Part shown: positions 32,940-55,653 of the stretch, piece after piece
Position numbering within the stretch: the first letter of the stretch is position 1
Layout of the letters: each line of letters begins with the position of its first letter
Assembly: GCA_902599045.1 (NCBI GenBank)
Contig: CACKEA010000004.1
Span: 1 to 64,000, forward strand
Length of the DNA: 64,000 bases
Direction of reading: 5' to 3'
DNA from: an uncultured Alphaproteobacteria bacterium
GTDB lineage: Bacteria > Pseudomonadota > Alphaproteobacteria > HIMB59
Notes under the pieces: generated by a model
What the model was told of the DNA's origin: nothing
Seen by the model: the letters and a program-made list of their open reading frames with translations, nothing else
Databases searched by the model: none
Position numbers and translations under genes: made by a program

Positions 32940-32940
32940 C

Positions 32941-36493: not shown

Positions 36494-36555
36494 AATTTCC
36501 TAACATGTTAGGTAAAGATTTAAATTAATCTTATTTGCATAAATCTATAAAGGGA

Positions 36556-36729: not shown

Positions 36730-36744
36730 TACCAAAAAAATATT

Positions 36745-37722: not shown

Positions 37723-37740
37723 TAATTAAGATTAATTCAA

Positions 37741-38634: not shown

Positions 38635-38652
38635 TAATTGTAAAATTAAATT

Positions 38653-38946: not shown

Positions 38947-39004
38947 GCCACTTCTTTGGTTTATACTACTTACTATGATAAATTTTTAGAACTAAGAAAA
39001 TTTT

Positions 39005-39331: not shown

Positions 39332-39359
39332 TAATGAAGAAGAATATATTTCTTAAAAT

Positions 39360-39401
39360 TTGAAAACTCTTTTAGGCCTAATTATATCCACATTTTATTA
39401 A
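39360..39401 (+). pseudogene. Second signal-peptide remnant
   Basis: A 13-codon frame from TTG reads MKTLLGLIISTFY and stops. It has the same MKTL start and hydrophobic run as the gene at 37741. It probably marks another broken exported-protein gene in the array. Confidence 0.35.
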
Positions 39402-39465
39402 CAGTTAAATTTTAAGTCTGTGTCCTCTTATAAAGGGCAATGCTAAAATTTTATTGAGGAGAGTA

Positions 39466-39750
39466 ATGAGTTTTTTTAATTCAAAAATATTATTGAATAT
39501 AGTTTTTATTTTTTTGCTTTTATATCTTGCTTACCACACTCTTCACGGTAGGTATAATATCCAAAATTATCTTATAAATAAGTTTGAATTAAAATTATTT
39601 CAAGACTTCCATTATAATTTAAAACAAAAATCATTGGCCATCGATATGGATTTGAAAGCATTGTACTATGAAAAAGATGATTTTTTAGATGAGCTTTCAA
39701 AACAATTTTCTGAACCTGAAGATGGAGAGACATTATTAAAATTAGACTAA
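39466..39750 (+). CDS. FtsB/DivIC-like septum formation initiator
   Basis: 94 residues from the ATG at 39466, which has GAGGAG just upstream. One N-terminal membrane helix (about 8-25) is followed by YHTLHGRYNIQNYL and a coiled-coil-like stretch ending in DDFLDELSKQF, matching the alphaproteobacterial septum formation initiator family. These proteins help assemble the divisome. The gene is usually next to eno and pdhA; here it stands alone among exported hypotheticals, so it may be a displaced or second copy. Confidence 0.6.
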   Translation: MSFFNSKILLNIVFIFLLLYLAYHTLHGRYNIQNYLINKFELKLFQDFHYNLKQKSLAIDMDLKALYYEKDDFLDELSKQFSEPEDGETLLKLD

Positions 39751-39840
39751 TAAAAACTTATGGGGTATCAAAAAAGCTTGATAAGAGGATCGATAATAAA
39801 GTTACATTACAAAGACAAAAAATATTAATAAATTGTTCTA

Positions 39841-41538: not shown

Positions 41539-41550
41539 AATTTTAGTACT

Positions 41551-42588
41551 ATGAGTATAAAGAAACTAGTTTTTATTTTTATTTTTTGTTCTTCCATATC
41601 ATATTCTCAAATTGATAAGACCTATTACTCTGCCGAAGAACTCTACGAAAAAATTGAAAGTCTAGAATGGCAGTACAGCACTGAACAGCCAATCGTAAAA
41701 GATGATAACTCCAAATCTTATATAGATTTACGAAACTTTCCTGATGTTAGATATTTGGTAGATACCAATCAAGCAAAACAATATGAATTTTGGATTAACG
41801 GATATGAGGCAGAACAAACGAAATTTATTTTTCAAATATTCCCCTCAGAAGATAAAACAAATTACGACTCAATTTTTTTATATGTAGATTTATTTAACAA
41901 TGTTGGATACGTCGATGGAAAGAGTTGGGCAAATGTGAATCCTACTCAAGAACTAAAAAAAAAATGGGAATCTCAACAAAAACAAAATGAGGAAATCATT
42001 GCAAATGGTTATAAACCTGTCACTAAACTTGAATGGTATATAGAACCTACTTTTAAATCGGATAAAGGGTACGTATATCAATCCTTTAAGGTACACTATG
42101 ATGATTATTATGTTTATAACACTTGGTTATATCTTCTGGGAAGAAATGGTTATCAATTTATGAGCTTAGTCTTTGATGAGGATGTATCTAAATATGTTGA
42201 TGAATCTTTTATTAATAAAGTTTTAGATAGTATTGTGTTTGAAGAGGGGAACGCTTACTATGAATTTAAGGAGGGTGATGAAGTATCTTCAACAAGTGCA
42301 GCTGACCTGGTTACAACTGAGGAAGAAAAGGAATTAATAAGCCTAATTTCCACTGAATTATTATGTGTTGATGTAACATCTCCTAATCAGAGAAGCACAG
42401 AAATAAGCGAATTACATGAAGGAATGATATTAGGCTTAGTATCCGGGTATAATATTTATGATTACCTTATACAGGGTGAAGATGGCTATGAGGGTACCCC
42501 CGAAAATTTACTTAATCAGGTAATTGACTATTGTAAAAAAAATCCAAGTGATAGTTTGGTAATTTCGGTGTTGAAATCTATAAGATGA
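41551..42588 (+). CDS. Exported protein with C-terminal Rap1a/Tai-like domain
   Basis: 345 residues, signal peptide MSIKKLVFIFIFCSSISYS. The central part (about 25-240) is beta-rich and unrecognised. The last 80 residues (ELHEGMILGLVSGYNIYDYL, then TPENLLNQVIDYCKKNP) resemble Rap1a/Tai immunity-type domains, including the Cys pair (LLCVDV and DYCKKNP). In most genomes this domain is a small periplasmic protein of its own. It overlaps the next gene by 4 bp. Confidence 0.55.
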   Translation: MSIKKLVFIFIFCSSISYSQIDKTYYSAEELYEKIESLEWQYSTEQPIVKDDNSKSYIDLRNFPDVRYLVDTNQAKQYEFWINGYEAEQTKFIFQIFPSEDKTNYDSIFLYVDLFNNVGYVDGKSWANVNPTQELKKKWESQQKQNEEIIANGYKPVTKLEWYIEPTFKSDKGYVYQSFKVHYDDYYVYNTWLYLLGRNGYQFMSLVFDEDVSKYVDESFINKVLDSIVFEEGNAYYEFKEGDEVSSTSAADLVTTEEEKELISLISTELLCVDVTSPNQRSTEISELHEGMILGLVSGYNIYDYLIQGEDGYEGTPENLLNQVIDYCKKNPSDSLVISVLKSIR

Positions 42589-42968
42589 TAAAAGCTATTT
42601 TATTTTTTGTTTTATTTATACCTAGTTTAAGTTTTTCTAAAGATGATACGTATTCATGTAAATTTTTAAAACATTATGATACTACTTTTGATTACCCCCA
42701 AAATATAACAATTAAAATTAACTTTCAGGATCAAATATTAATTAGTTATATTGAAGATAATCAAGATTTAACAGATTCATATTTTTGCAAAAATTGTAGT
42801 TCTCCCTCTAGTAGGATAGATATTTGGACTATTCGTTACGATCCTTGGTCACTTGATCAAACTCATTTCCAAAATGCCAGAGTATTTGAAATATATGCAG
42901 AAGATTTAGTCGGGCATTTATGGAGGCCTGCACAAAATGGAGTCGATTATCAGTGTAAGATTTCATAA
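42585..42968 (+). CDS. Exported Cys-rich protein of unknown function
   Basis: 127 residues with signal peptide MIKAILFFVLFIPSLSFS, of the shared IPSLSF type. The mature domain has Cys in YSCKFL, YFCKNCSS and YQCKIS. Beta-rich by appearance. It is coupled to the upstream gene (ATGA overlap). Not recognised; the layout is similar to 43623-44027. Confidence 0.55.
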   Translation: MIKAILFFVLFIPSLSFSKDDTYSCKFLKHYDTTFDYPQNITIKINFQDQILISYIEDNQDLTDSYFCKNCSSPSSRIDIWTIRYDPWSLDQTHFQNARVFEIYAEDLVGHLWRPAQNGVDYQCKIS

Positions 42969-42986
42969 TCACTTTTTATTGAAAAA

Positions 42987-43616
42987 ATGTTTTTAATATT
43001 TGGCACTTCCGGTTCTACTTCAGTTCAAGACTCAGGCCAATTTTATTGTCCAGAATGCGATGATTACAAAAATTATGAACATAAAAAAGTTCAAAAAAAA
43101 GCATCTTTATTTTTTATTCCATTGGTTCCTATTGAGGACTTGGGAGATTACGTCGAGTGCCAAGACTGTAAAGCTACTTACAAGAAATCTGTATTAGATC
43201 ACGATCCCAAAGCTGAGGAAGAAAAAATTAGATCTTTATATTACTTTGGCACACTAGATATTATGATTAGCATAGCTCATGCTGATGGTGTCTTATTAAA
43301 AGAGGAAATCACAGAGATTAGAAATACCTTTGAAAGCATAATTGGCAGCGAGGTATCAGAGGAATTTCTTAATCAACAAATTGAAAAATCTAAAGAAACA
43401 AATTATTCACCTGTTCAGGTTGCAAGTGCTTTAGCCGCCCACTTAAATGACGTGGGAAAAGAGAGAGTACTAAGAGGAGCTATTGCCATCTCTAAAGCAG
43501 ATGGTGTAATACAAAATGAAGAACTTGTTATGCTACATGATATTTCTAAAGCTCTTTTATTGCCTAAAACTTATGCCAATGGTATCTTTGGAGAAGAGGA
43601 AGTGAAATTAATTTAA
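42987..43616 (+). CDS. Zinc-ribbon plus TerB-like protein
   Basis: 209 residues, no signal peptide. An N-terminal zinc ribbon (CPEC near 22-25, CQDC near 60-63) is followed by a TerB/DjlA-type helical domain: DIMISIAHADGVLLKEEITE near 80-99 and a repeat RGAIAISKADGVIQNEELVM near 160-179. TerB domains bind metal through acidic residues and occur in stress and tellurite-type systems. Start ATG 42987. Confidence 0.7.
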   Translation: MFLIFGTSGSTSVQDSGQFYCPECDDYKNYEHKKVQKKASLFFIPLVPIEDLGDYVECQDCKATYKKSVLDHDPKAEEEKIRSLYYFGTLDIMISIAHADGVLLKEEITEIRNTFESIIGSEVSEEFLNQQIEKSKETNYSPVQVASALAAHLNDVGKERVLRGAIAISKADGVIQNEELVMLHDISKALLLPKTYANGIFGEEEVKLI

Positions 43617-43622
43617 TAAAAA

Positions 43623-44027
43623 ATGATTAAATATCTGATTGGTATCCTTATTTTTATTTGTGGAAGTTTGGTAGCTCAAGAGGAGTTATTTACTTGTAAT
43701 GATATTGATAGTGGGGGATTTTATTATAATGGTAGCGAGTATAAATTAACCCTTTTTAATTTAAGTCAATTTGACATCAAAATTGACTTTGACAATAGAA
43801 CAATTGAAAGTTCTGATTTACTTTTTGAACAAGCATACTGTCTTGATAATTCTAAGAACCTAGCTCTATTAACATGTAGTAATCGTTATGGTCAGACATT
43901 TATGATTAATGCATTAAATTATGAGTTTACTTACTCTACTATTTTTGGTCATGTGGGCGATGGACCAAGTGATAGTGGTTACGCTGATTCTATTGGGGTT
44001 AGATTTGGCACTTGTAGAGAAATTTAA
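43623..44027 (+). CDS. Exported protein of unknown function
   Basis: 134 residues, signal peptide MIKYLIGILIFICGSLVAQ. The mature domain has Cys in FTCNDI, AYCLDN, LTCSNR and GTCREI, enough for two disulfides, with a GFYYNGSEYKLTLF segment typical of small periplasmic beta proteins. No named family. It lies 6 bp after the TerB-like gene. Confidence 0.55.
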   Translation: MIKYLIGILIFICGSLVAQEELFTCNDIDSGGFYYNGSEYKLTLFNLSQFDIKIDFDNRTIESSDLLFEQAYCLDNSKNLALLTCSNRYGQTFMINALNYEFTYSTIFGHVGDGPSDSGYADSIGVRFGTCREI

Positions 44028-44074
44028 ATTAATAAAATACAAACCTCTAAATATATTTTTTCCAAATTAGTGAA

Positions 44075-44773
44075 ATGATAAAAATTCTATTACCATTATT
44101 ATTAATTTTCTTAATATATTTTCCTTATATCTACGTTCGCTACATATATCAAAATTATAATAAATCATTAGATTTAATGCCTTTTAAAGGAAGAGAATTT
44201 GCTGATAAAATACTCAATGAACAAGGACTTAAAGAGATACAAATTGAGCCACAAAAAGCCACTTTGCAAAATTTTTATAATCCTAGAAATAAATCAATAG
44301 GAATTGAGAGTGATTTATTAAATAAAAAAAGTCTTACAGCACTTTCTATTATTGCTCATGAAGTAGGACATGCAATACAGCATAAAGAAAATTATAAACC
44401 CTTAATACAAAGACATGAGCTACTCGAAAAGACAGTTGTTTTTCGAACAATCGGATCCTCTATTGTAACGCTAGGAGTTGGTCCAATATTTGCTTTTACT
44501 AATAGTTTTTCTTTCACTTTAATCGCTACGGTTATCGCTCTTCTTTTTTTCTGCATTGAGATTTTTATTAATCTATTTACTTTAAAATGTGAATACGATG
44601 CAAGTTTTAATCGGGCAATGCCAATTTTAAAAGAAAATGTTCCCAGCGAATATATAGATCAGTGTAAAAAAGTTTTAAATGCCGCCGCTCTCACATATGT
44701 TGCAAATTCTATAATTCGAGTTTTATCACTAAGAAATTTCTTTTTTATTTTCTTACGTCTACTAAAACGTTAA
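44075..44773 (+). CDS. YugP-family zinc metallopeptidase
   Basis: 232-residue membrane protein of the neutral zinc metallopeptidase family (Zn_peptidase_2). An N-terminal helix precedes the zinc motif IIAHEVGHAIQH (HEVGH near 107-111), two hydrophobic helices, then CEYDASFNRAM, where the Glu is the third ligand and the DASxRA block is family-typical. The fold places the active site on the membrane's cytoplasmic side. Substrate unknown. Confidence 0.8.
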   Translation: MIKILLPLLLIFLIYFPYIYVRYIYQNYNKSLDLMPFKGREFADKILNEQGLKEIQIEPQKATLQNFYNPRNKSIGIESDLLNKKSLTALSIIAHEVGHAIQHKENYKPLIQRHELLEKTVVFRTIGSSIVTLGVGPIFAFTNSFSFTLIATVIALLFFCIEIFINLFTLKCEYDASFNRAMPILKENVPSEYIDQCKKVLNAAALTYVANSIIRVLSLRNFFFIFLRLLKR

Positions 44774-44781
44774 AATTAATT

Positions 44782-46092
44782 ATGAAAAGTTATTTAATTT
44801 TATTTTTACTATTACCAAATTTAATCTTTGGTGAGTCCTTGGAAAAAGTTATCGCAGATGCTAACCTTTATACAGTAAAAATTGATGTCTCTACGGAGAT
44901 GCCTTTCATTGAGGATAGTTGGTATGGAAGCGGGACAGGATTTCTAGTTGATAAAAAAACTGGTCTTATTCTCACCAACAAACACGTCTCCAGTCAGTCA
45001 CCCTCTCTTATCGATATCAACTTCAAGGGTGAAGATTATCTTGAAGGCACGATTGTTTACGTCGACCCTATTTTTGACATAGCTTTAATTACCACTAACC
45101 CTAGTCTCATTCCAGATTTTGCTGTTAATGCGCCACTGGCTTGTGATCAAACCCCTATTCAAGGTGAGTCCGTGGTAGCTTTTGGCCATCCTGCAGGTCA
45201 AGATTTTACTGCGAGTACAGGAATTATCTCTGGTCAGCGCTTTGAACTTACCGCTCAAGCTGAGTTTATTCAAACCGATGCCGCCATTAACCCTGGCAAT
45301 TCAGGTGGACCTTTAATCAGTGTTAAAACAAACCAAATTATTGGAATTAATACTTACGGTATTGAGGCAGAAGGATTAAATTTTGCTTTACCCTCGGAGC
45401 ATTTCTGTAAAATTATCAATCTCTTTAGAGAAAACATTGACCCTTCACCAGCCAAACTCCCATTTATCTTTGCCTCTAACACAGACCGAAATCTTCACCT
45501 AAAAGTCTCTGACTATATTTCTTTTGGACAAAATAACTGTCAGGGAGGAGAGGGCGAAGAGACTATCAACAAACCCTTAAAGATAGGCGATGAGATTTTA
45601 TTTATTAATCAACAAGAAGTAAAAAATCCTAGTGATATTTATTCTCTTCTAAGAGGTCCTGCTTTAGACCAATCAATTGAATTTTTGATTAGTAGGGGAG
45701 GCGAAGAAAAAACTATTATATTGGAGGATCCATTTGATCGCCGATCCAACATCTTAGATCGAATTGGTCTCAAGTTTTCTGGATTAATGGTTGGGACAGA
45801 TTTATCTGGAACCGATCGATTAGAAAATGAAGCCTTCTATAATTATTGCCAAAATCTTACTATCCAAGTCGTGGATACAGGACCCGCTTATGGTGAGTTG
45901 TATAGCTATGATCAAATAGTAAGTGTCGATGGAGAAAAATTTTTTAGTTTAAACAAACTTCATGACTACCTTCTAGATAAAGACAAAGCAGAGTTTATTG
46001 TAAGAAGAATTGAGTATTTTGATGGAACTCAATATATTGTTGATGTAACTAAAGTAATTGAAATAGAAGATGTAAGTTTTCTAACTTTTTAA
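44782..46092 (+). CDS. HtrA/DegP-like periplasmic serine protease
   Basis: 436 residues with a signal peptide (LILFLLLPNLIFG). The protease domain has catalytic His68 (LTNKHV), Asp99 (FDIALI) and Ser174 (GNSGGP at 172-177). Two PDZ domains follow: about 235-320 (KIGDEILFINQQEV) and about 345-425 (YDQIVSVDGEKFFS). It degrades or refolds damaged envelope proteins. It is slightly more GC-rich than the surrounding small genes. Confidence 0.85.
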   Translation: MKSYLILFLLLPNLIFGESLEKVIADANLYTVKIDVSTEMPFIEDSWYGSGTGFLVDKKTGLILTNKHVSSQSPSLIDINFKGEDYLEGTIVYVDPIFDIALITTNPSLIPDFAVNAPLACDQTPIQGESVVAFGHPAGQDFTASTGIISGQRFELTAQAEFIQTDAAINPGNSGGPLISVKTNQIIGINTYGIEAEGLNFALPSEHFCKIINLFRENIDPSPAKLPFIFASNTDRNLHLKVSDYISFGQNNCQGGEGEETINKPLKIGDEILFINQQEVKNPSDIYSLLRGPALDQSIEFLISRGGEEKTIILEDPFDRRSNILDRIGLKFSGLMVGTDLSGTDRLENEAFYNYCQNLTIQVVDTGPAYGELYSYDQIVSVDGEKFFSLNKLHDYLLDKDKAEFIVRRIEYFDGTQYIVDVTKVIEIEDVSFLTF

Positions 46093-46105
46093 ATACTCAT
46101 TCCTA

Positions 46106-46519
46106 TTAGTCTAAAAATTTCTTAATAATAGATTTATATCTTTCATCTTCGTGTATTTTTATTACCTCACTTATAATAAGAATTTCGAGAGACTCTTCTA
46201 ACATTTCATCAGTAGGTTTTTTTTCAAAAATTTTAATAAAGTATTTCTCTTTTATAACTCTTCTTAACTCATCTAACGGACAATATTCACACCACATTTT
46301 ATCTTTCATTATTTCGATATTTAACTGAGATTGAAAAATACTCATTTCACCAAATTTATCTAAAATAGTGTGTAATTCCTCGTCAGTTATATAGGTTAAG
46401 TTTTCTATTTTATAATTGTAGACCTTTTTAAGACCCTCATATTTACAGATGTCATAGAGATTGCCAAGAAGGTGATCATAGTATTGATCTTTCCATTGAT
46501 CGTATTCAAATAATTTCAT
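46106..46519 (-). CDS. Protein of unknown function
   Basis: 137-residue, mostly helical, charged cytoplasmic protein with a Cys pair (CEYC near residue 72). No family is recognised. It is convergent with the HtrA gene (13 bp between stops) and has an independent A/T-rich upstream region. Confidence 0.5.
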   Translation of the reverse strand: MKLFEYDQWKDQYYDHLLGNLYDICKYEGLKKVYNYKIENLTYITDEELHTILDKFGEMSIFQSQLNIEIMKDKMWCEYCPLDELRRVIKEKYFIKIFEKKPTDEMLEESLEILIISEVIKIHEDERYKSIIKKFLD

Positions 46520-46578
46520 TAAATATTGATATTTTAATAGATAGTCTAATAATTAGTATTAAAATTTAAGTATAAACA

Positions 46579-46809
46579 ATGATCACTTGGTCTACTTTTC
46601 TTTTATTTGACTTATTTCTAATATATTTAGCTTATGAGTTTCCGTATATGATACTTTGGTCTGGCATGGGCATATTTGCAGTTACATCAGTGGTTAAAGC
46701 ACCCCAATCCAAAATTAATTTTGTTTTGGCAAGAATGCAGGTTCGACTCCTGCCGACCACGCCAATTCTATGTGATAGAATTATCCACAATTTTTCTACA
46801 ATAAAATAA
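46579..46809 (+). CDS. Doubtful small membrane ORF running into the tRNA-like element
   Basis: 76-codon frame. The first 40 residues (FLLFDLFLIYLAYEF, MILWSGMGIFAVTSVV) form two hydrophobic helices and could be a real short membrane protein. The remainder is read through the tRNA-like T-arm, so the frame is either truncated by that insertion or spurious. Confidence 0.3.
   Translation: MITWSTFLLFDLFLIYLAYEFPYMILWSGMGIFAVTSVVKAPQSKINFVLARMQVRLLPTTPILCDRIIHNFSTIK
46690..46764 (+). other. tRNA-like element 2 (T-arm and acceptor only)
   Basis: 75 nt ending in encoded CCA with discriminator G. The acceptor strands GTGGTT and GACCAC pair over 6 bp (last pair T-G), and the T-arm GCAGG-TTCGACT-CCTGC is perfect. 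There is no D-arm; the middle forms CCAAAA/TTTTGG around a 9-nt loop. An 18-nt block containing ATGCAGGTTCGACTCCTG is shared with the element at 35406-35495. An 8-bp perfect hairpin (AATTCTAT/ATAGAATT) overlaps its last base. Confidence 0.3.
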
Positions 46810-46824
46810 CTTCAAATTAAATAG

Positions 46825-46870
46825 GTCTCCACCCCTTTTAAAAAGGAGACGAAATAAAATTTAAAGGGGT
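46825..46870 (-). terminator. Terminator-like inverted repeats
   Basis: GTCTCC/GGAGAC (46825-46830, 46845-46850) and ACCCCTTT/AAAGGGGT (46831-46838, 46863-46870) give competing hairpins just past the stop of the leftward gene at 46888. A termination role is plausible; the exact structure is unclear. Confidence 0.4.
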
Positions 46871-46887
46871 AGAGTTCTATCATCGGC

Positions 46888-47853
46888 TTAATGAACAGCG
46901 ATGCCTAACAAGTGAACTGGAAAGTTATTATGTGCTAAAAGATTAGCTTTTAACTTATCAGCTTTTTTTGAGCGATATTCGTGACCAAGACCAAAGTAGT
47001 CTTGATTTTCTTCGACGGGTAATTGACAAATATCACCAAAAAACTTTCTAAAATGTAAAGGTGGAATACGAGATCGATCTATTCCTTTATCGAGTATTTC
47101 CAAAACACAGCTTTTAATTATTTTGGGAAGGAAATGCTTAAATAAATAATTACCATGAAAAATATCAATACCTTCAATTTTATTTCCAATTCCATAAATG
47201 ACTCCAATATCATTTATTTGAGCTTGAAACCGAGAGACATAATCTTTGAGTATTTTGTCTTTATCTTTATAAACATTATTCATGGACGAGGTAGCATTAT
47301 GAGAATTCAAGTTATTCATTTTTTCATGAATATTTTCCCAAACTCTTCCCTGGTTTGTTTGATAATCGGCACGTTCATGAATATCTTGAAATTTCTCTTT
47401 TCGGCCTTTATTAAAAATAATGTTATCACTAGCAGAAAAATTCCGAGAGTTGTAACTCCATCTATTTTGTTCAACACAACTCACAGGAATTTCAGAAGTG
47501 TGATGTGGTTTGATAATAAAAGAGCTATTCACTATTCTATTCTGCTTTGCGCCAATTAATTCCTCACCATCCATGATAAATAAAGATTGTTGAGATTTAT
47601 TTTGAATCAACAGTTTTGGCACATTACCACCTTCACTTACTTCTTTAATGATCACGTCACCAGACTTAATTCCTTCTGTCAGAGTTAAATAGCGTTGACC
47701 ATCATCTTTCTTGGGGTTTGAGATACCGACCAAAGTTAAACCTTTGTAGGTTAGGGGTTTGCTTAATTGAAGCGTTTGATCATGAAAAAAATCCATAATA
47801 AAGGAATTTTTAAAATCATTATTTTCATAAGCGTCATCTAATTTAAGTTTCAT
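46888..47853 (-). CDS. ARPP-1-type domain protein
   Basis: 321 residues. The segment LFIMDGEELIGAKQNRIVNS near residues 91-110, followed by IPVSCVEQNRWSY, is the hallmark of the ARPP-1 family (associated with ADP-ribosylglycohydrolase and rhodanese-phosphatase genes). No catalytic activity is established for it. The family turns up in conflict-type gene neighbourhoods, which fits the DUF2130 and nuclease-like genes nearby. A 72-bp gap separates it from the upstream gene. Confidence 0.68.
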   Translation of the reverse strand: MKLKLDDAYENNDFKNSFIMDFFHDQTLQLSKPLTYKGLTLVGISNPKKDDGQRYLTLTEGIKSGDVIIKEVSEGGNVPKLLIQNKSQQSLFIMDGEELIGAKQNRIVNSSFIIKPHHTSEIPVSCVEQNRWSYNSRNFSASDNIIFNKGRKEKFQDIHERADYQTNQGRVWENIHEKMNNLNSHNATSSMNNVYKDKDKILKDYVSRFQAQINDIGVIYGIGNKIEGIDIFHGNYLFKHFLPKIIKSCVLEILDKGIDRSRIPPLHFRKFFGDICQLPVEENQDYFGLGHEYRSKKADKLKANLLAHNNFPVHLLGIAVH

Positions 47854-47925
47854 ATATATTTCTCTTTCTTACCCGTCGAGGTTGATTGAAGTTAATATGA
47901 TTTGTTAGGTTATCGTTCATTGTAG

Positions 47926-48417
47926 CTAATTATCTTTCGCATTTGTGGAGCATTTGTAATCTAAAACATCATCAACTAAATCGCAGAAATTTTCATAAGT
48001 ACCAAAATCAATCAGGCCATACCTTTCACGAAACAAATGCACCCAATCAGAGTGAATCTTCTCTAAGCTAAAATTATCAATGGGGCTTTCTATAATTAAG
48101 GCATAGTTATTCATTATTTGATTGATGTTAAATTTAACAAAATCTCGAAATGTTAGTTTTTGTCCAAGACAATAATCAAGGATTATTCGTGATGTTCTAA
48201 GAACGGGCATAAAATGCCGAGTTCGAAAACCTACACGCTGCATTGGATCAATAAAAAACTTCTTTGCTATTTGTAAGGTTATATCGTATTTCTGTTTTTC
48301 ATTGGGAAATGTATTATTACAAAAGGGTTCGTAATAAAGTTGAAATTCTTTTTTTTGAAAACAATTTAACCATCTACGGCAATATACTTTTAACGATTTA
48401 TATTTTATATCTTCCAC
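47926..48417 (-). CDS. Protein of unknown function
   Basis: 163 residues from a GTG at 48417, which overlaps the stop of the small membrane gene by a few bases. It is helical, with Trp/Phe-rich segments (RRWLNCFQKKEFQLYYEPFC) and GFRTRHFMPVLRTSRIILDY. No family is recognised. It is in a tight leftward operon with the DUF2130 and small membrane genes. Confidence 0.55.
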   Translation of the reverse strand: MEDIKYKSLKVYCRRWLNCFQKKEFQLYYEPFCNNTFPNEKQKYDITLQIAKKFFIDPMQRVGFRTRHFMPVLRTSRIILDYCLGQKLTFRDFVKFNINQIMNNYALIIESPIDNFSLEKIHSDWVHLFRERYGLIDFGTYENFCDLVDDVLDYKCSTNAKDN

Positions 48418-48418
48418 T

Positions 48419-48571
48419 TCAGGCTCCTACTATCAAATACAAATATCCAAAGTAACAAGTAGAAATTACTAAAATTGATATAAACCAGTGACTGAAGACA
48501 AATTTAATACCTAATATAAAAAATATCAAAGCCACCACTATCCAAAATAATGCATGTGCAATTGTCATCAT
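48419..48571 (-). CDS. 50-residue membrane protein coupled to DUF2130
   Basis: Start ATG 48571 overlaps the DUF2130 stop by 4 bp (ATGA) and the stop TGA overlaps the next start region. Two hydrophobic segments (about 7-25 and 29-48) are almost contiguous. The tight coupling on both sides supports a real gene. Unknown function. Confidence 0.6.
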   Translation of the reverse strand: MMTIAHALFWIVVALIFFILGIKFVFSHWFISILVISTCYFGYLYLIVGA

Positions 48572-49527
48572 TGATCAACCTCATCTAAAAGGTTGTCAGG
48601 TATTTCATCTAACACTAATGCTTCCTTCCAAATTCTTTGGAAATTTTTTTTACGATCTGTCAGAGCCAATCTCTCAAGAGAAACCGTCTTGATATTTGAT
48701 CGTTCCATCTTATCAATTCTATCTTGACTCTCGTTTTGTGCCTTGAGTTCAGCAACTAAATAATTTTGTAAAAAACCCTCTTGGAGAAAAGCACTTGCTT
48801 TTTTTTCCTGATCACTGTGGTTATCAAGTCTCTTTGATAATTCTTTATTTTTTTGATGTTTATTTATAATTAAATCTCGAAGGCCCTCTACTAAGGCTTT
48901 TATTAAAGGTTTCTTATTCTTGACAATAAATATTCTTTTACTTTCTCTTTCAATCCAAGGTTCTATATCGTATTGAAATTCAGCAGGCATCGCAGATGTC
49001 ACAATTACTCCAAAATCCCTCTTTTCATTTTGCATGTCTTCAAGGAGCTTCTTCACCCAATTATTACTAAATCTACTCACTCTCTTGCTCTCAAAATAAA
49101 TTGAGCCAACTATTTCATTTTGGTATTGAACAGTTAAAACGCAGTCACCACCTGATGCACCTTTTTTGATTTCGTGCAATGAATCTTGAGCAAAGTGTGA
49201 TGATAAGAAATTTTCTAACCATTTTTCACCAACTTCACCTTGAATCTCCATAGACTCTTGGGACAGTGGTTTTTGAGCTTCATCTAATTTCTTTTTTAAA
49301 CGTTGTTTTTCAATCTTTTCTTTTAAAAGAATTTCCTCTTTTTCCTCATTATGTTTATTATCTTTTTCAATTAATTTATCATCATAAATCTGTTTTTCTT
49401 CTTTTCTTATATTTTTAATCAATAACTCTCTCTGAGACTCGAGTGATTGGCTTAAAATATCTTGAAATACATCTTCTCCTGAAAAACTTTTGTGACAATG
49501 TGGACATTCGATCATTAATTTTTCCAT
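48568..49527 (-). CDS. DUF2130 family protein
   Basis: About 319 residues from the ATG at 49527, preceded by AAGGTGG; an earlier in-frame GTG at 49539 is less likely. An N-terminal zinc-knuckle-like CPHC (residues 8-11) is followed by a long coiled coil (about 25-90). The DUF2130 core then reads YFESKRVSRFSNNWVKKLLEDM and DFGVIVTSAMPAEF, a restriction-endonuclease-like arrangement with ESK as the candidate ExK. A DNA-end or nuclease role is plausible but unproven. It leads the leftward half of the candidate defence island. Confidence 0.75.
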   Translation of the reverse strand: MEKLMIECPHCHKSFSGEDVFQDILSQSLESQRELLIKNIRKEEKQIYDDKLIEKDNKHNEEKEEILLKEKIEKQRLKKKLDEAQKPLSQESMEIQGEVGEKWLENFLSSHFAQDSLHEIKKGASGGDCVLTVQYQNEIVGSIYFESKRVSRFSNNWVKKLLEDMQNEKRDFGVIVTSAMPAEFQYDIEPWIERESKRIFIVKNKKPLIKALVEGLRDLIINKHQKNKELSKRLDNHSDQEKKASAFLQEGFLQNYLVAELKAQNESQDRIDKMERSNIKTVSLERLALTDRKKNFQRIWKEALVLDEIPDNLLDEVDQ

Positions 49528-49558
49528 ATTACACACCACCTTGAATATTAAATTTAGC

Positions 49559-49587
49559 TACCAGGCACCAACTAAGGGTGCCTGGTA
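49559..49587. promoter_or_regulatory. Perfect 11-bp hairpin in the divergent region
   Basis: TACCAGGCACC, a 7-nt loop, then GGTGCCTGGTA, between DUF2130 (leftward) and the small ORF at 49606. It could be an operator read as DNA, or a leader hairpin ahead of the small ORF's AAAGGAG ribosome site. It is far more GC-rich than its surroundings. Confidence 0.65.
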
Positions 49588-49605
49588 TTAGTAGAAAGGA
49601 GACAT

Positions 49606-49698
49606 ATGACAAGAAGAAAATTTTTATATTTGTTAAACTCATTGCAATCTATTATACGATCAAAAAAAAATTTATTTTTCATTTATAATTTTTTTTAA
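49606..49698 (+). CDS. 30-residue ORF with strong ribosome site
   Basis: AAAGGAG lies 5 nt before an ATG. The product starts MTRRKFLYLLNSLQSIIRSK and ends in IYNFF: a basic, amphipathic or membrane-active type of peptide. It stops 10 bp before the nuclease-like gene. It could be a leader peptide, a toxin-like peptide or simply chance. Confidence 0.4.
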   Translation: MTRRKFLYLLNSLQSIIRSKKNLFFIYNFF

Positions 49699-49707
49699 TC
49701 GTATAAT
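49651..49707. promoter_or_regulatory. Inverted repeat and possible promoter before the nuclease-like gene
   Basis: ATTATACGAT (49651-49660) and ATCGTATAAT (49698-49707) are exact reverse complements 37 nt apart. The right arm holds TATAAT (49702-49707), so it may be both a -10 element and an operator. The same CGTATAAT octamer recurs in the promoter at 50274-50279. Confidence 0.45.
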
Positions 49708-49708
49708 T

Positions 49709-50254
49709 ATGTGTATGAAAAAATATCCATATAAAACTTCATTATCTCTTGCAAAAATGATTCAAGGAAAAATTATACAAGAAGCAATTTTTTTTGCTTT
49801 ATCAAATAAATCTGAGAATATCTCTCAAAAAAAAGTATTTGAATACGCCAATAATAGATACTCAGTTTTAGCTAATAAAATTCATAAACATTCACTTAAA
49901 AAAGTAGAGAAATTTAATAATATCTTAATTCGAACAGGTCTACATTTTCTCAAAAGCATAAAAGCTTTGCAATGCTCGATTCCTCATCCCATCCTTTTCG
50001 AAGATCATTACGTTTATCCTGATTTTTTTTTTAAAAGTCTTCTTTTTGATAATAAAAAATTAAAAAAATGTTACGTTGAATTAAAAATTACAAACAATTT
50101 TAATAAGAAAAAATTATCAAGAGATATTGCTCAAGCAAAAAAATATATTCATGGTAGTAATAATTCTTTTTTATTTTATCTCATTGTTGAAAATTCCAGA
50201 AAAATTACTAACTTAAAAATATCAACTAAATTGTATAAATTAAAAAATACTTGA
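49709..50254 (+). CDS. PD-(D/E)XK nuclease-like protein
   Basis: 181-residue, very basic protein. YVYPDFFF with Asp105, then CYVELKITNN with Glu124 and Lys126, and AQAKKY with Gln142 follow the PD...ExK...QxxxY pattern of the PD-(D/E)XK phosphodiesterase fold. The N-terminal 90 residues are helical and Lys-rich, suited to nucleic acid binding. The start is ATG 49709, or ATG 49715, which would be nearly leaderless if the TATAAT at 49702 is used. It is followed directly by the structured RNA and sigma factor gene. Confidence 0.6.
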   Translation: MCMKKYPYKTSLSLAKMIQGKIIQEAIFFALSNKSENISQKKVFEYANNRYSVLANKIHKHSLKKVEKFNNILIRTGLHFLKSIKALQCSIPHPILFEDHYVYPDFFFKSLLFDNKKLKKCYVELKITNNFNKKKLSRDIAQAKKYIHGSNNSFLFYLIVENSRKITNLKISTKLYKLKNT

Positions 50255-50279
50255 AAATTTTTTTAAGATAACGTATAAT
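50251..50279 (+). promoter_or_regulatory. Sigma70-type promoter for the structured RNA and downstream genes
   Basis: TTGAAA (50251-50256), a 17-nt spacer and TATAAT (50274-50279). The expected start of transcription is about 50286, just at the first paired base of the RNA structure below. The -35 box overlaps the stop codon of the upstream gene. Confidence 0.7.
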
Positions 50280-50287
50280 ATAGTTAT

Positions 50288-50361
50288 AGAGGCAAATTGT
50301 GCTGACATTGCGCCGGCACCGGTAGTTTTGCTTAAAATCTTACCAATTTTAGCCTCTTTTA
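50288..50361 (+). ncRNA. Structured RNA or leader with three-way junction
   Basis: AGAGGC (50288-50293) pairs with GCCTCT (50352-50357); AAATTG/CAATTT (50294-50299, 50344-50349) extends it with a TA bulge. Inside are two hairpins: TGCTG/CGGCA (50300-50304, 50314-50318; 9-nt loop) and GGTA-TTTT/AAAA-TTACC around GCTT (50321-50343, using one side or the other of the shared Cs). The closing stem is followed by TTTT, as in an intrinsic terminator. It could be a roughly 75-nt sRNA or an attenuating leader for the sigma factor gene, whose ATG is 26 nt further on. No known riboswitch class was recognised. Confidence 0.55.
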
Positions 50362-50386
50362 TTAACTTATAAGAAAGGAAGCTAAA

Positions 50387-50986
50387 ATGCTTACATACAA
50401 AAACTATAATAAACTAAGTTTAAACCCTAATAATATTGGTGTTTATAACGACCCACTTGCAACTATATATCACGAATATGCTAGTCTTGTCAGAGTATCA
50501 ATATCTAAGGTTCTTAAGAATAAAAATGGCAAATTTTACCTAAAAGATGAATTAGATGATTTTGTCCAAGACTTTTTTTGCAATATTGTAAAAAAAGATA
50601 TTCTGAACAAAATTGATGTTTCAAAAGGATCCATCAGTACGTTTTTATGGAAGTCTGCTCAAAACTTTGCGATAGACAAGGTTAGGTTTTTAAATAGAAG
50701 AAAACGCAACCATACCAAAACAATACCGTATGATGATTTTCCTATTAACCCATCTTCTTCCAATCATGGTGAGGATATAGAATCCACCAGAGATTGCGAA
50801 ACCATTTTAGAAAAGGTATTACCTAAACTTTCTGTTATGGAAAAAAACATAATGAAGTATTCAGTAGATGGAATTACCCCAAAAGAAATATCTGCTAAAA
50901 CTGATTTATCTTTAAACGAAGTTTATAAACATCGTTCTAAAGCTTTTCAAAAAACGAAGGCTGTTATGTCTAATTTAGGATATTAA
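50387..50986 (+). CDS. Sigma-70 family (ECF-like) sigma factor
   Basis: 199 residues. Region 2 reads DELDDFVQDFFCNIVKKDIL to STFLWKSAQNFAIDKVRFLN (about 53-100), and region 4 reads VLPKLSVMEKNIMKYSVDGI then TPKEISAKTDLSLNEVYKHR (about 144-185), a complete HTH. No anti-sigma factor gene is adjacent. The ribosome site AAAGGAAG precedes the ATG. It lies 9 bp upstream of the ATPase gene and forms one operon with it, which suggests self-controlled or condition-specific expression of the module. Confidence 0.78.
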   Translation: MLTYKNYNKLSLNPNNIGVYNDPLATIYHEYASLVRVSISKVLKNKNGKFYLKDELDDFVQDFFCNIVKKDILNKIDVSKGSISTFLWKSAQNFAIDKVRFLNRRKRNHTKTIPYDDFPINPSSSNHGEDIESTRDCETILEKVLPKLSVMEKNIMKYSVDGITPKEISAKTDLSLNEVYKHRSKAFQKTKAVMSNLGY

Positions 50987-50995
50987 GGAGGAAAC

Positions 50996-52873
50996 ATGCA
51001 TAAAGAATTAGAAAAACAAATAGAAACTGTAAGATCGTTAGACGAATTAAAATCTCAAAACGAATTCGTTCAAAAGAACAAAGATAAGGGTTCTGGTCTT
51101 TCATCATTTATTAATGCCCAAAGTTATATCAAGGGTATTAGAGATCTTGGATACAAATCCTCTTCTTGGGCTTGTAATGAATTAACCGATAATTCACTTC
51201 AAGCAGGTGCATCACAAATACACTATTATGTGACTCCAACTCCTGGAAAAAAAAGCGCCGATAAACTTATTGTGATCGACGATGGTCATGGCATGCAAAG
51301 TGATATGCTGCCATATGCAATAGCCTGGGGCGGAACTCATCGTTTTAATAATCGAAGGGGATTTGGCCGATATGGCTTCGGCTTACCTTCAGCATGTGTA
51401 AGTATGGGTCAAAAATATACCCTCTATTCTAAGACAAAAGATGATGAGGAGTGGAGCAGTATTACTTTTGACCTCACCAAACTCCCAGATGAAATGGAAA
51501 GTTTAGATATTTACAATACAGTAGTTGAAGGGCCTAAAAAAACTGAATTACCATCAGTAGTTCTTGAATATGAGAGCGAGGAATTTGATGTTTCTCATCT
51601 TAAAAGTGGTTTAATTATCATAATTGAGGAATTAGATAAACTTCAGCCCAAAAAAATCGATGATTTAATCGCTAATTTTCGAAGAGACTTTGGTTTAACT
51701 TATTTTCCTTGGTTGTCAAAAGTATCTATGTTTGTGAACAAAGAAAAACTTTCTCCACTTGACCCATGTTTTGTAACTCCTGGAGCTCAAGGTTATGAGT
51801 GGGAAAAGAATAATGTCAAAATTATTCCAGATGAAAAAAATTACTATGAGTCTGTAATTCCTATAAAAGTGGATGATAAGCAGCATCAACTTATAGTAAG
51901 AGCTACTAAAATTCCCCATAATTTTACAATTCCTATGGATGAAAACGGTAAGTTTAACAAATCTGCTGACAATAAATCTTTCCGATTTCGTCAATTAGCT
52001 GATTATAACGGAATACTTTTCAGAAGACTTGGAAGATTAATGGACTGTGTCACCAAGAAAGTCCCTGGGCTCACTATCATGAATAATTCCAGATATTGGG
52101 TATGTGAAATTGAATTCCCACCTGAATTAGATGAAGAGTTTCAAGTTACCACATCTAAACAGCAGCTAATTCCAAGCAAAAGAATATGGGATAACATAAG
52201 AGAGAAATCAAATAATAATATTTTTGATCTTTTAAAGAAATGGACTAAAGATTACTCAATAGAAAAGGCCGAATTCGAACAGTCACTTTCTGAAGAGGAA
52301 GGTGCTGGTGAAAGAAAAAAACTTTCTGAAATCAAAATGGAGGAAACTAAACTTCGAGCTGATGTTGCTACTGAAGAATTTGGTCAACGCGTAGATAAAA
52401 GAGAAGAGAGAAAAAATCAAAAAATTGATGATCTTGCAACTAGCGAAGGTATTTCAGTTGAACAAGCAAAATTGAAATATGACACGTTATATGCAGATCA
52501 TCAATATAAAGTAACTCTTCAAAAGATGAGTCATCGATTGCCTATGTTTAATTTTGATGAACATGGAACAACAATTGAACTTATTATTAACACTGGTCAT
52601 GTTTTTTATAATAAGTTTTATAATAACTCTCAATTGTCACCTACGATGAAAACAAACTTAGAGACCATGTTATTTTGCATGGCTGATAGAATTATGCCTA
52701 AACCAACTCGTGACCAACATTTTCTCGAGGAATATTTAGCTGATGTATCGAAAAGGTTTGGTCAAATCCTAGATGAAAACCCCACAGAGGATGAACTAAG
52801 TGATCAAGAGGCTGAACTAGTTCAAAAAGAGGAAACTCTCGATGACGACCTTAAGGATATACTAGAAGTATAA
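50996..52873 (+). CDS. GHKL-type ATPase (MutL/MORC-like)
   Basis: 625 residues. All three GHKL motifs are clear: NELTDN (61-66, catalytic Glu62 and Mg-binding Asn66), VIDDGHGM (93-100) and GFGRYGFGL (122-130). An S5-like domain follows, then a long charged coiled coil (about 420-490) and an acidic tail. It is not a histidine kinase (no H-box) and not GyrB or Hsp90 by length and motifs; MutL/MORC-type ATP-gated dimers acting on DNA are the closest idea. MORC-like bacterial proteins are known in restriction-type operons. Ribosome site AAGGAGG. Confidence 0.78.
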   Translation: MHKELEKQIETVRSLDELKSQNEFVQKNKDKGSGLSSFINAQSYIKGIRDLGYKSSSWACNELTDNSLQAGASQIHYYVTPTPGKKSADKLIVIDDGHGMQSDMLPYAIAWGGTHRFNNRRGFGRYGFGLPSACVSMGQKYTLYSKTKDDEEWSSITFDLTKLPDEMESLDIYNTVVEGPKKTELPSVVLEYESEEFDVSHLKSGLIIIIEELDKLQPKKIDDLIANFRRDFGLTYFPWLSKVSMFVNKEKLSPLDPCFVTPGAQGYEWEKNNVKIIPDEKNYYESVIPIKVDDKQHQLIVRATKIPHNFTIPMDENGKFNKSADNKSFRFRQLADYNGILFRRLGRLMDCVTKKVPGLTIMNNSRYWVCEIEFPPELDEEFQVTTSKQQLIPSKRIWDNIREKSNNNIFDLLKKWTKDYSIEKAEFEQSLSEEEGAGERKKLSEIKMEETKLRADVATEEFGQRVDKREERKNQKIDDLATSEGISVEQAKLKYDTLYADHQYKVTLQKMSHRLPMFNFDEHGTTIELIINTGHVFYNKFYNNSQLSPTMKTNLETMLFCMADRIMPKPTRDQHFLEEYLADVSKRFGQILDENPTEDELSDQEAELVQKEETLDDDLKDILEV

Positions 52874-52881
52874 ATTTGAGT

Positions 52882-52907
52882 TTGGGGGTGCAATATCGCA
52901 CCCCCAA
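52882..52907 (+). terminator. Perfect 10-bp intercistronic hairpin
   Basis: TTGGGGGTGC, a 6-nt loop AATATC, then GCACCCCCAA, between the ATPase stop and the next ATG at 52915. No T run follows, so it is probably an mRNA stabiliser or partial terminator that sets lower expression of the last gene. Confidence 0.7.
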
Positions 52908-52914
52908 CTATTTC

Positions 52915-55089
52915 ATGAGAGATATTAAGGAAAATATAACAAAAGAATTTATTCCAAATATTCACTATGAATTACTTGATGATATTAGAGATAAGTTTTT
53001 TGAATTTTCCAAAAAAGGTCACGATCTTCTAGATCCTAATTCTAAAAAAGCAAAAGAAGAATTAGTCTCTTATCTTAGATCGCAGTATCATGAGAGTTAT
53101 TTAAAAATTAAAGATTTCAAAAAAACTGAAAAAATAAATAAAAATAGTTTCGCATTTAAAGAATTTTTAAAATCTAATTACACAGAGGATCAAATTAAAT
53201 ATTTTGCCACGTGTAGCATTCTTGCTGATTTAATTGAAGCAGGGTTTTATATTAGATTATCTAGAGAGGGATTTAGTATCAGAAAACCCCTTGACAGTAT
53301 TAACAAAAATCAAAAACCAGAGGACTTAAAAGATCAAATAAGAGATTTTCATCTAGGTAGAAGAGATGAACAAATTAAGTCATTTGAAGTTCAAAATTTT
53401 CTAGAAAGGATGGAAAAGCCAAAAAAAGTTGGAAATGAATTAAAATCAGTTCTTGATGTCATAGATAATGGATCAGAATTAGCTGAGCTTTTTAAAAGTT
53501 CTGAAAAGATGTCAGAAGATGATCGCTTTACATATTTAAAAAACTTAATAAAACCAGAGTTAGTTCCATGCTACCCAGACGATTATTTTAAAGAGGAAAG
53601 CAAACTATGTCCTTATACTCGTTTACGTTTAATTGATATATGGAGATATGTTAGACTAACTTGGAGTATTGAGCTAAAAAGTGTACCCGGCAGAAGTTTC
53701 CCCTTTTTAATTAGAAACGCAGCTCGCCCAAATAAGCCCATAATGGGAATTACTCTTTTTCGTAGCCCAGCTATATCGGATAAAGCACGTGATAGTTTTA
53801 TTGGATGGAGAAGTGAAAAACAACTTAGGCAAAAAATATACACTGGTGAACTCCCAATAGAGGAATTTATAAAATCACTAATTAGTCATTTGAATTCAGC
53901 AATAAATGAAGTTTATATAAAAGATTTTATATCTATTTCTAAGAAAAATTTACGATACCCTAATCAAGAACTCATTGATTACTTAAATAAAATAGATGAA
54001 AAAAAAACTTCCGACAGAATTGATGATCTTGAAGTTGAAAACTACCAATCCAAAAACAAGATAGACTCCTCAGCGTCACATGATTTTGAAACATTGGCTA
54101 CAACTAATTTATTTACTGCAAAAAGAGCGAGAAGATTAGCCCAACTCTTGGAGATTCAAATAGCTTTTAACGAACATGATTTGTACTCTAATGCCGCTAA
54201 AGGATACGCTTCCTTGACATATAATCAGAAGGGACAAGATCTTATAGAAAGGTTGATTAGAGAAGTAAGAATTAGAGCTCTATCTGAAAACTTCGTTGAC
54301 ATAGGTGTATGTGGGGCTGTAGCACCATACAATGAAATCTTGGCAGGAAAATTAATGGCACTTTTAATGGCCTCAAAAGAATGTCATGAAGCTTATTCAG
54401 AAAGATACAAAAATCAAATTTCTCAAATATCATCTCAAGTTGCAGGAAAAGAAATAGTAAGAAAAGCAAATCTTTTTGCTTTTACAACCACTAGTTTATA
54501 CAGCATAGGGGCCAGTCAATATAACAGGTTGAAACTCTATAAAAAAGACCATCCAGAAATTAAAGAAGATATAAAATTGAATGAAATTTTTGATGAAACT
54601 GAAGACACAAAAACTTCCATGACCTCCGCTGGTCTAGGAACTCATCACATAAGTGAGCCAACAACAAGATTGCTCGAAGCTTGTAAAATATTAATTCAAG
54701 GACATGACAAAGTTACCTTTACATTTGGTGAGGGAACTAGTCCTAAACTCAGAAGCCTCTCATCTGGTTTAAGATTACTGATACATTCCGAAAGTGATAT
54801 TGCTAATAAAGATTTTTTGATGCACTCCTTTAAAAGGAAAAATTACATAATGGTTACTCATAAAAACCCTCTAAAAAAACTTTTAATTCCAGGAAATGAA
54901 GAGAAATTAAATTTATCATCCATTGATGAGATAAGCCAAGCGTGGCTTAGGAGATGGGTTGTAAAAAGGTGCATAAGAAAACAAACACTATTCAATCTTA
55001 AAAAATTGAATGCTCAATACGTAAAGAGTCTTTTTATAAGAGTTCTATCAAATAAAAATGTAAATGAGGAATTATTTCCTAACGTTTAA
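52915..55089 (+). CDS. Large protein resembling DUF4338/DruA
   Basis: 724 residues from the ATG at 52915; an in-frame TTG at 52876 would place the hairpin inside the gene. Residues near 278-298 (GITLFRSPAI, then RDSFIGW) and 464-482 (GVCGAVAPYNEILAGKLMAL), followed by TTTSLYSIGASQYNRLKLY at about 524-542, resemble the DUF4338 domain of the Druantia protein DruA, whose biochemical role is unknown. The N-terminal 200 residues are helical and unrecognised. It is paired with a GHKL ATPase rather than DruE helicase. The family call is from memory of motifs and is moderate. Confidence 0.6.
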   Translation: MRDIKENITKEFIPNIHYELLDDIRDKFFEFSKKGHDLLDPNSKKAKEELVSYLRSQYHESYLKIKDFKKTEKINKNSFAFKEFLKSNYTEDQIKYFATCSILADLIEAGFYIRLSREGFSIRKPLDSINKNQKPEDLKDQIRDFHLGRRDEQIKSFEVQNFLERMEKPKKVGNELKSVLDVIDNGSELAELFKSSEKMSEDDRFTYLKNLIKPELVPCYPDDYFKEESKLCPYTRLRLIDIWRYVRLTWSIELKSVPGRSFPFLIRNAARPNKPIMGITLFRSPAISDKARDSFIGWRSEKQLRQKIYTGELPIEEFIKSLISHLNSAINEVYIKDFISISKKNLRYPNQELIDYLNKIDEKKTSDRIDDLEVENYQSKNKIDSSASHDFETLATTNLFTAKRARRLAQLLEIQIAFNEHDLYSNAAKGYASLTYNQKGQDLIERLIREVRIRALSENFVDIGVCGAVAPYNEILAGKLMALLMASKECHEAYSERYKNQISQISSQVAGKEIVRKANLFAFTTTSLYSIGASQYNRLKLYKKDHPEIKEDIKLNEIFDETEDTKTSMTSAGLGTHHISEPTTRLLEACKILIQGHDKVTFTFGEGTSPKLRSLSSGLRLLIHSESDIANKDFLMHSFKRKNYIMVTHKNPLKKLLIPGNEEKLNLSSIDEISQAWLRRWVVKRCIRKQTLFNLKKLNAQYVKSLFIRVLSNKNVNEELFPNV

Positions 55090-55555
55090 AGTCAGTCTGA
55101 TAATCACAACTACTATTGCTACAACATATATACCAACCATCTCTACCATATGCCACTAAGGTTTCATTTGCACATCTTAAACATTTAGATTTATGACGAG
55201 GGATACTTGGTGAGTCTAGAGGAGGCAGTGAACCATCACTTTCCTTAGCGCACTTAGCGGAACATATATTTGTATTGGGAAAAAAATTCATTCTGTTTAG
55301 CGAAATAGGGTATTTGCAAATTTTGCAAAATCTTAACTTATTACCATCTATGACCAATTGATCATTAGAGTCATACATATTCATACTATCTGACTGACAA
55401 TCTTTACATTTAATTCGAGTATATATCTTATTTATGTTTAATAAATTAAGTGTCAATTCAATTTGGTGTGATTGATAAAAGAAATTCTCAAACTTTTCTT
55501 TTGTGACATTCTTCTTTTGACCACAAATTAAGCATTCAACAATAAAAAACTCCAT
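55079..55555 (-). CDS. Multi-zinc-finger protein of unknown function
   Basis: 158 residues with many Cys pairs: CLIC, CKDC, CKIC, an ICSAKCAKE segment and a C-terminal topoisomerase-like ribbon (CLRC, then CCSNSSCDYQ). At least three zinc sites are likely. It is convergent with the DruA-like gene and overlaps it by 11 bp. It may be a DNA- or RNA-binding accessory of the module or an unrelated neighbour. Confidence 0.6.
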   Translation of the reverse strand: MEFFIVECLICGQKKNVTKEKFENFFYQSHQIELTLNLLNINKIYTRIKCKDCQSDSMNMYDSNDQLVIDGNKLRFCKICKYPISLNRMNFFPNTNICSAKCAKESDGSLPPLDSPSIPRHKSKCLRCANETLVAYGRDGWYICCSNSSCDYQTDFKR

Positions 55556-55653
55556 TAAATTTAATTTTACAGTAAAATTGTTAAAAAATTGTAATTTATT
55601 TAAATTTTTCTTCGTAAAAACTTAGTTTTTGCTATTATCCGCTTTCTATTTAA

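What the first reader, a model, noticed from the sequence alone, without database searches (positions are those of the whole stretch)
49606..55089. Candidate undescribed defence or DNA-transaction module: nuclease-like, structured RNA, sigma factor, GHKL ATPase, DruA-like protein
Five elements in one direction with 9-60 bp gaps: a PD-(D/E)XK-like protein (Asp105, Glu124, Lys126), a folded RNA with its own promoter, a sigma factor, a MutL/MORC-like ATPase with all three GHKL motifs, and a 724-residue protein resembling DUF4338/DruA. I know of no described system that joins a DruA-like protein to a GHKL ATPase under its own sigma factor. Druantia systems use a DruE helicase, absent here. The flanking ARPP-1 and DUF2130 genes add to the defence-island look. 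Function is inference.
Basis: partly seen in the sequence, partly recalled or inferred. Interest (0 to 1): 0.9.

Follow-up and report, generated by a model that had tools for sequence, protein, structure and literature searches.

The report
Self-regulated MORC-ATPase–DruA island module
A compact, mobile gene set from ocean bacteria links a MORC-like ATPase, a DruA protein, a nuclease, a sigma-like factor and probably a small RNA behind its own repeated promoter-like signal; it looks like an undescribed phage-defence system.

Summary
Window 49,709-55,089 encodes a PD-(D/E)XK-like protein (NUC), a leader RNA, a sigma-like protein (SIG), a MORC-like GHKL ATPase and DruA. The same order occurs in 10 SAR11 loci. 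A GHKL gene directly precedes DruA in 70 of the 80 nearest DruA loci. DruE was not found in this genome or in 11 SAR11 genomes (partial assemblies). New: (1) a lineage-specific promoter-like motif stands three times: an inverted pair beside NUC and once before the SIG leader. In six SAR11 genomes 13 of 13 exact copies lie in the module; in the window 3 of 3. (2) SAR11 group B has a divergent ~140-nt RNA with strong covariation (12 of 41 pairs; 0/500 shuffles). The module lies in a 20-kb insertion absent from two sister genomes and is rare. DruA's core models as GNAT-like. Sigma genes adjoin GHKL-DruA in other phyla. I think it is an accessory, self-regulated anti-phage module; function is untested. 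It fails Druantia membership (no DruE). In group B the SIG-position gene is not demonstrably a sigma factor.

The parts
49709..50254 (+). NUC: PD-(D/E)XK-like protein; probable true start ATG 49715, about 7 nt after the -10-like element (leaderless mRNA inferred)
   Evidence: D/E/K triad and Q..Y invariant in 11 homologues; model matches mostly PD-(D/E)XK folds
50286..50386 (+). leader RNA of the SIG-GHKL-DruA operon; can fold to hide the SIG ribosome-binding site (inference)
   Evidence: position conserved, structure alone not significant in the window
50387..50986 (+). SIG: sigma-factor-like protein, 199 aa
50996..52873 (+). GHKL (MORC-like) ATPase, 625 aa
52915..55089 (+). DruA, 724 aa, conserved core modelled as GNAT-like fold
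49651..49660 (-). module motif AWCGTATAAT, copy 1 (divergent)
49698..49707 (+). module motif, copy 2 (before NUC)
50270..50279 (+). module motif, copy 3 (before the SIG leader)
49555..49645 (-). candidate divergent small RNA (pyrimidine-rich stretch, then a hairpin at about 49559-49587); counterpart by position of the covarying SAR11 RNA
   Evidence: homology to the SAR11 RNA not shown
35530..55625 (.). 20.1-kb insertion that carries the module; absent from sister genomes G330 and G333

Best explanation
This is an accessory, horizontally carried defence module against phages or other mobile DNA. SHOWN: conserved gene order, invariant active-site-like residues, the GHKL-DruA link, the insertion, the triple motif, and a covarying divergent RNA in SAR11 group B. 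INFERRED: the sigma-like protein (or a DNA-binder in its place) reads the motif and drives NUC, the divergent RNA and the SIG-GHKL-DruA operon, giving a switch that stays nearly silent and amplifies itself when triggered; the leader hides the SIG ribosome-binding site, and the divergent RNA, which carries an anti-Shine-Dalgarno-like stretch, tunes SIG translation. The MORC-like ATPase dimerises on foreign DNA as a clamp, DruA (a GNAT-like acyltransferase fold) acts with it as a co-factor or modifier, and NUC is the likely cutting effector in this DruE-less form, where other lineages use the DruE helicase.
Against: No phage-defence assay exists. PADLOC matches among ten window proteins beyond DruA are weak or a shared protease domain. 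The SIG-position protein of SAR11 group B has no Pfam match in 2 of 2 tested and no detectable homology to the group A sigma-like protein, so a repressor or other regulator could read the motif. The motif test fails in L039 and L187 (115/300 and 97/300 at K=10), is weaker in L037 (7/300), and for the window gives 24/300 at K=12 and 11/100 in the first run; the K=10 run with a longer NUC upstream followed those. The window's own RNAs lack comparative support. L102, an alphaproteobacterial single cell with GHKL-DruA, has no NUC or SIG upstream. The 80 DruA loci are the nearest of 230 to a query alignment built from five GHKL-linked DruA proteins, so 70 of 80 is not a rate for all DruA. SAR11 genomes are partial, so absence of DruE there is weak. 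The GNAT match is not significant in Foldseek itself (best E 2.6).
Confidence: 0.5

Rival explanations
1. A reduced or broken Druantia-like system: the GHKL-DruA pair is what remains of a larger DruE-containing system, and the window copy is inactive or only partly active.
For: DruE lies near 33 of 70 GHKL-DruA loci, and a DruD-like family recurs (one member tested). Leisingera and Paracoccus have DruE1 next to DruA while in Roseivivax none is annotated on the 17.7 kb shown.
Against: The window reading frames are open and the GHKL, DruA and NUC key residues are kept across the aligned relatives; the DruE-less order with its own regulatory signals is conserved in diverged lineages (DruA identity 34-44%), which a relic would not keep.
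Confidence: 0.15
2. A DNA-transaction or maintenance module of a mobile element (integration, partition, or control of its own copy) rather than a defence system.
For: Module at the edge of a 20-kb insertion beside a degenerate tRNA-like sequence; relatives on plasmids.
Against: No recurrent neighbour that I identified is an integrase or relaxase, but most neighbours were not annotated; DruA models as GNAT-like, not as a recombinase; DruE and DruD companions are defence genes; no match of DruA or GHKL in 50,697 phage records at tblastn 1e-5.
Confidence: 0.15
3. A silencing system: the MORC-like ATPase and GNAT-like DruA compact or chemically mark foreign DNA or its proteins, and the sigma-like factor and RNAs only regulate it; NUC is a regulator rather than an effector.
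For: Closest solved relatives are eukaryotic MORC proteins; GNAT-like core; NUC profiles hit no gene outside the SAR11/window group among the neighbourhood genes searched.
Against: No direct evidence for DNA compaction or acetylation; NUC keeps a complete nuclease-like triad.
Confidence: 0.15

Closest known systems
Druantia type I (druABCDE; gene list recalled)
   Same: DruA homologue (PADLOC DruA1 1.1e-131); relatives carry DruE1, and some a DruD-like gene, beside the GHKL-DruA pair
   Different: No DruE in the genome, and no DruB/C/D match among the ten window proteins tested; a MORC-like ATPase, NUC, sigma-like protein and RNAs instead
Prokaryotic MORC/paraMORC restriction-like operons (Iyer 2008, PMC2292703, passages read)
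   Same: GHKL ATPase with MORC-like N-terminal domain beside a PD-(D/E)XK-like protein
   Different: No helicase or methylase in the module; partner is DruA; the paper's main text holds no 'sigma', 'GNAT' or 'acetyltransferase'
Mza system (MzaB)
   Same: Weak PADLOC MzaB match of the ATPase domain (2.1e-8, residues 40-149 only)
   Different: No other Mza component matched among the ten proteins tested
Shedu with GHKL domain (VcSduA, PMC12137116, passages read)
   Same: GHKL ATPase thought to control a PD-(D/E)XK nuclease
   Different: There one fused protein; here separate genes plus DruA and SIG

Membership tests
Druantia (any type) | DruE helicase | tested here: not met
   PDLC00013 finds nothing in G000 at E<=10 and nothing in 11 SAR11 module genomes at E<=0.001 (partial genomes); control genomes ring, 12 of 14
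Druantia type I | DruA (DUF4338) | tested here: met
Druantia type I | DruB, DruC, DruD next to DruA | tested here: not met
   no PADLOC DruB/C/D match among ten window proteins, which include the genes on both sides of DruA; other ORFs of the region were not scanned
MORC-like GHKL ATPase | GHKL motifs N, G1, G2 and closest homology to MORC | tested here: met
   (MORC2 best among solved structures); whether in the MORC family proper or a paraMORC was not tested
PD-(D/E)XK nuclease | D...ExK triad on the conserved fold | tested here: met
   invariant triad in 11; fold match moderate, best E 1.1e-3
sigma-70 family factor (window SIG) | regions 2 and 4 over curated cut-offs | tested here: inconclusive
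   window protein below cut-offs; sigma-28 FliA C-terminal part at 6.8e-5 with a profile; group B not shown
GNAT superfamily (DruA core) | GNAT fold | tested here: inconclusive
anti-phage defence system | protection in a plating assay | not testable with these tools
   -

The most novel reading that the evidence does not exclude
A new kind of bacterial immune system with a private transcription circuit: a dedicated sigma factor and its fast-diverging cognate promoters switch on a nuclease, a structured small RNA and a MORC-like ATPase/GNAT-like DruA pair, the RNA and leader forming part of the trigger or of the effector complex; the sigma-MORC-DruA core is spread over several phyla.
Probability: 0.3. 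Interest if true: 0.92.

Novelty: new variant of a known kind. Interest (0 to 1): 0.8.

Why it matters
It gives DruA, whose role in Druantia is unknown to me, a frequent partner (a MORC-like ATPase) and a likely fold (GNAT), so its mechanism becomes testable with two or three proteins. It joins ATPases of the eukaryotic silencing type to bacterial immunity. A defence module with its own sigma factor and lineage-private promoters would be a new way to keep immunity silent and orthogonal. It also offers a candidate defence locus in SAR11 and in a HIMB59-like lineage (name recalled), where few genomes carry it.

Tried and rejected
Rfam: no family at gathering score in the window or for the leader/divergent RNA region of five SAR11 loci, which gave only tRNAs; permissive searches of the window leader and of the L043 leader gave one sub-threshold match each; the one at 50346-50388, a CRISPR-repeat model at 24.6 bits against a cut-off of 35, is taken as a chance hairpin. 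PDB by sequence: nothing meaningful for NUC or DruA. Phage records: none for DruA or GHKL. DNA pattern of the SAR11 leader in viral contigs: none. Roseivivax sigma-annotated gene against the window sigma: not convincing (no sigma match in Pfam). The ~227-aa gene that lies beside two GHKL genes in nine loci looked sigma-like to my eye, but 4 of 4 tested members have no Pfam match. Shared motif in L039 and L187: not found by the triple test. ARAGORN finds no tRNA at the island border; cmscan gives a sub-threshold tRNA at 35406-35489 (19.6 bits, E 0.26), so the tRNA-site idea is only a lead. Reading the pyrimidine-rich stretch as a short + strand leader peptide (window about 49,607) was considered; SAR11 pairing with G-U cells favours the minus-strand RNA, but the peptide is not excluded. 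(a methyltransferase family in the own genome) only served to place the window. Literature, open-licence library only: no paper holds both 'Druantia' and 'GHKL'; two five-term searches gave nothing on this module in the 2 of 2 and 25 of 33 papers listed; DUF4338 is in 3 papers; of 47 papers with Druantia and DruA, 30 were listed; of 56 from the SAR11/Druantia search, 12 were listed. I judged listings by titles and abstract openings.

Full report
WHERE. The window is on contig 4 of a 1.37-Mb genome, 94.8% complete. A single-contig genome of its genus is 1,410,127 bases long, which from memory is the size of strain HIMB59, so I take it for a HIMB59-like marine alphaproteobacterium; the name rests on recall. 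The nearest DruA relatives are in Pelagibacteraceae single cells.

WHAT IS THERE. NUC, leader, SIG, GHKL and DruA lie on one strand. Family evidence for each is in the observation check. DruE, the helicase shared by Druantia types, is absent from G000.

THE PAIR. One scan of genome contigs with a DruA alignment (five proteins, four of them from GHKL-DruA loci outside the window) found 230 relatives, of which the best 80 were kept. By my gene of 80 have a GHKL gene on the same strand ending within 250 bp of DruA (observed gaps -104 to +87 bp). Of the other 10, L038 has a GHKL gene one ORF away, L111 has DruA near a contig end, L089 was missed by my script's strand or family filter, and seven (L045, L065, L079, L091, L106, L113, L115) lack it. 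DruE is on the fetched stretch in 33 of the 70; many stretches are cut by contig ends. Six loci from viral contigs were also fetched. The pair keeps several companies: DruE with a DruD-like gene and a 967-aa family whose one tested member has no PADLOC or Pfam match; DruE with other helicase sets; two GHKL genes with a ~227-aa gene between.

SIGMA PARTNERS. Among 76 small genes within 700 bp of the GHKL-DruA unit, in 50 of 64 non-SAR11 loci, 9 match Sigma70_r4_2, 6 Sigma70_r4 and 4 Sigma70_r2 at E<=0.01 (members overlap). Among 76 control genes (of 138 available) more than 3.5 kb away, no sigma family is among the 25 of 40 families shown (the 15 not shown could each hold a member). Tested by name: L067 (Calidithermus; r4 3.7e-10), L082 (Opitutia; r2 1.7e-9, r4 5.3e-8), L090 (Cyclobacteriaceae; r2 7.8e-6), L092 (Fulvivirga; r4_2 9e-6, r2 4e-5), L103 (Roseicella; r4 6.4e-8) and L053 (Erythrobacter; r4 1.1e-9); 6 of 10 tested, the four ~227-aa proteins being negative. 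By the gene calls each of the six lies directly before a GHKL gene that leads to DruA. The group A profile alone also finds L090 and L097 (3.4e-4, 6.2e-4).

THE FULL MODULE. NUC-leader-SIG-GHKL-DruA occurs in the window and ten SAR11 loci; L038 is cut upstream, and L102, another marine alphaproteobacterium, has GHKL-DruA without NUC or SIG. Two groups: A (window, L037, L039, L187, L188) and B (L040, L041, L043, L046, L059, L066). NUC of A and B are homologous (hhalign E 2.9e-10); SIG of A and B are not detectably so (E 0.39). So 'sigma factor' is supported for group A only.

MOTIF. In group B the motif TCCGGRGTATATA, with single-base variants, stands as an inverted pair between NUC and the divergent side and once 125-136 bp before the SIG start. 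Searching six whole genomes gave 13 exact copies, and by their coordinates all 13 lie in the module; the reversed pattern gave 2. In the window the motif is AWCGTATAAT, three copies in 64 kb, all here, same layout. L188 has another version (ACCCCATA...). The letters differ between lineages and agree within a locus. Failures (L039, L187, window at K=12) are under evidence against. Because the NUC copy ends next to the NUC start codon, NUC is probably translated from a leaderless message (inference).

DIVERGENT RNA. The minus-strand copy of the group B motif precedes a ~140-nt RNA-like stretch: long closing stem, three inner helices, a variable pyrimidine-rich loop and an invariant TCCTTTCT, like an anti-Shine-Dalgarno sequence. 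On six sequences 41 pairs are predicted, 12 with double changes; shuffles reach this 0 of 500 times and slid structures give 0-2; the number of further pair types alone is not exceptional (70/500). The minus strand is favoured over the plus. Group A and the window have stem-loops in the same place that I did not align to it; there it is a candidate only. The SIG leader of group B is well conserved and folds around the ribosome-binding site and start codon, but its covariation is weak.

MOBILITY. Window 30,856-35,529 and 55,626-58,098 align to sister genome G330 at 94.4% and 93.0% with 16 bp between them; in G333 the same flanks lie 36 bp apart. So 20.1 kb that carry the module are an insertion. 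Of the window genes 39,841-55,555, none has a close match upstream of the flanking HCDH gene in the 18 relatives fetched (9 to 17 kb each), except gene 46,106 in three (70-75%); two genes have partial 29-30% matches in L165 and L166. In SAR11 the module lies between an rmuC-like and a hisG-like gene in the 8 loci where both are seen (in L188 in the opposite orientation); L041 has rmuC but no hisG in reach, L038 and L039 are cut. Carriage is rare: 2 of 162 in its order match, G000 and G259, the latter with only a ~400-aa relative; 5 of 397 and 7 of 397 (overlapping the former, centre included). In 385 genomes of the class 5 match: G000 and four with only ~400-aa relatives.

READING. I commit to an accessory defence module with its own transcription circuit; steps shown and inferred are marked in the best explanation. 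It is not Druantia by membership (DruE and DruB-D not met) but may work like the DruA part of it.

PAPERS. Passages read: PMC12458937 (no GHKL, sigma factor, MutL or MORC in its main text), PMC10853773, PMC12137116, PMC2292703, PMC13192584, PMC8565338. The rest are search listings.

Noticed in passing
L037:11927-12760 (+): Gene right after DruA fuses RNA polymerase alpha C-terminal domain (2.5e-20) with sigma region 4 (2.6e-14).
   Followed up: no
L084:12091-14979 and relatives in 32 of the neighbourhood loci: 967-aa family that recurs with GHKL-DruA, a DruD-like gene and DruE; the one member tested has no Pfam or PADLOC match.
   Followed up: partly
L044, L051, L052, L058, L072, L073, L100, L101, L114: A second GHKL gene plus a ~227-aa gene family beside GHKL-DruA; it looks sigma-like by eye, but 4 of 4 tested have no Pfam match.
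   Followed up: partly
window 35406-35489: Degenerate tRNA-like sequence ending in CCA at the left border of the 20-kb insertion.
   Followed up: partly
L038:1057-1500, L188 ORF of 138 aa: Small extra ORF between GHKL and DruA in two SAR11 loci, not identified.
   Followed up: no
window 32941-34326: Protein with a neurotransmitter-gated-ion-channel transmembrane match (9.8e-7), just left of the insertion.
   Followed up: no
SAR11 loci, minus strand left of the module: Variable run of very small genes after the divergent RNA, differing between loci.
   Followed up: no
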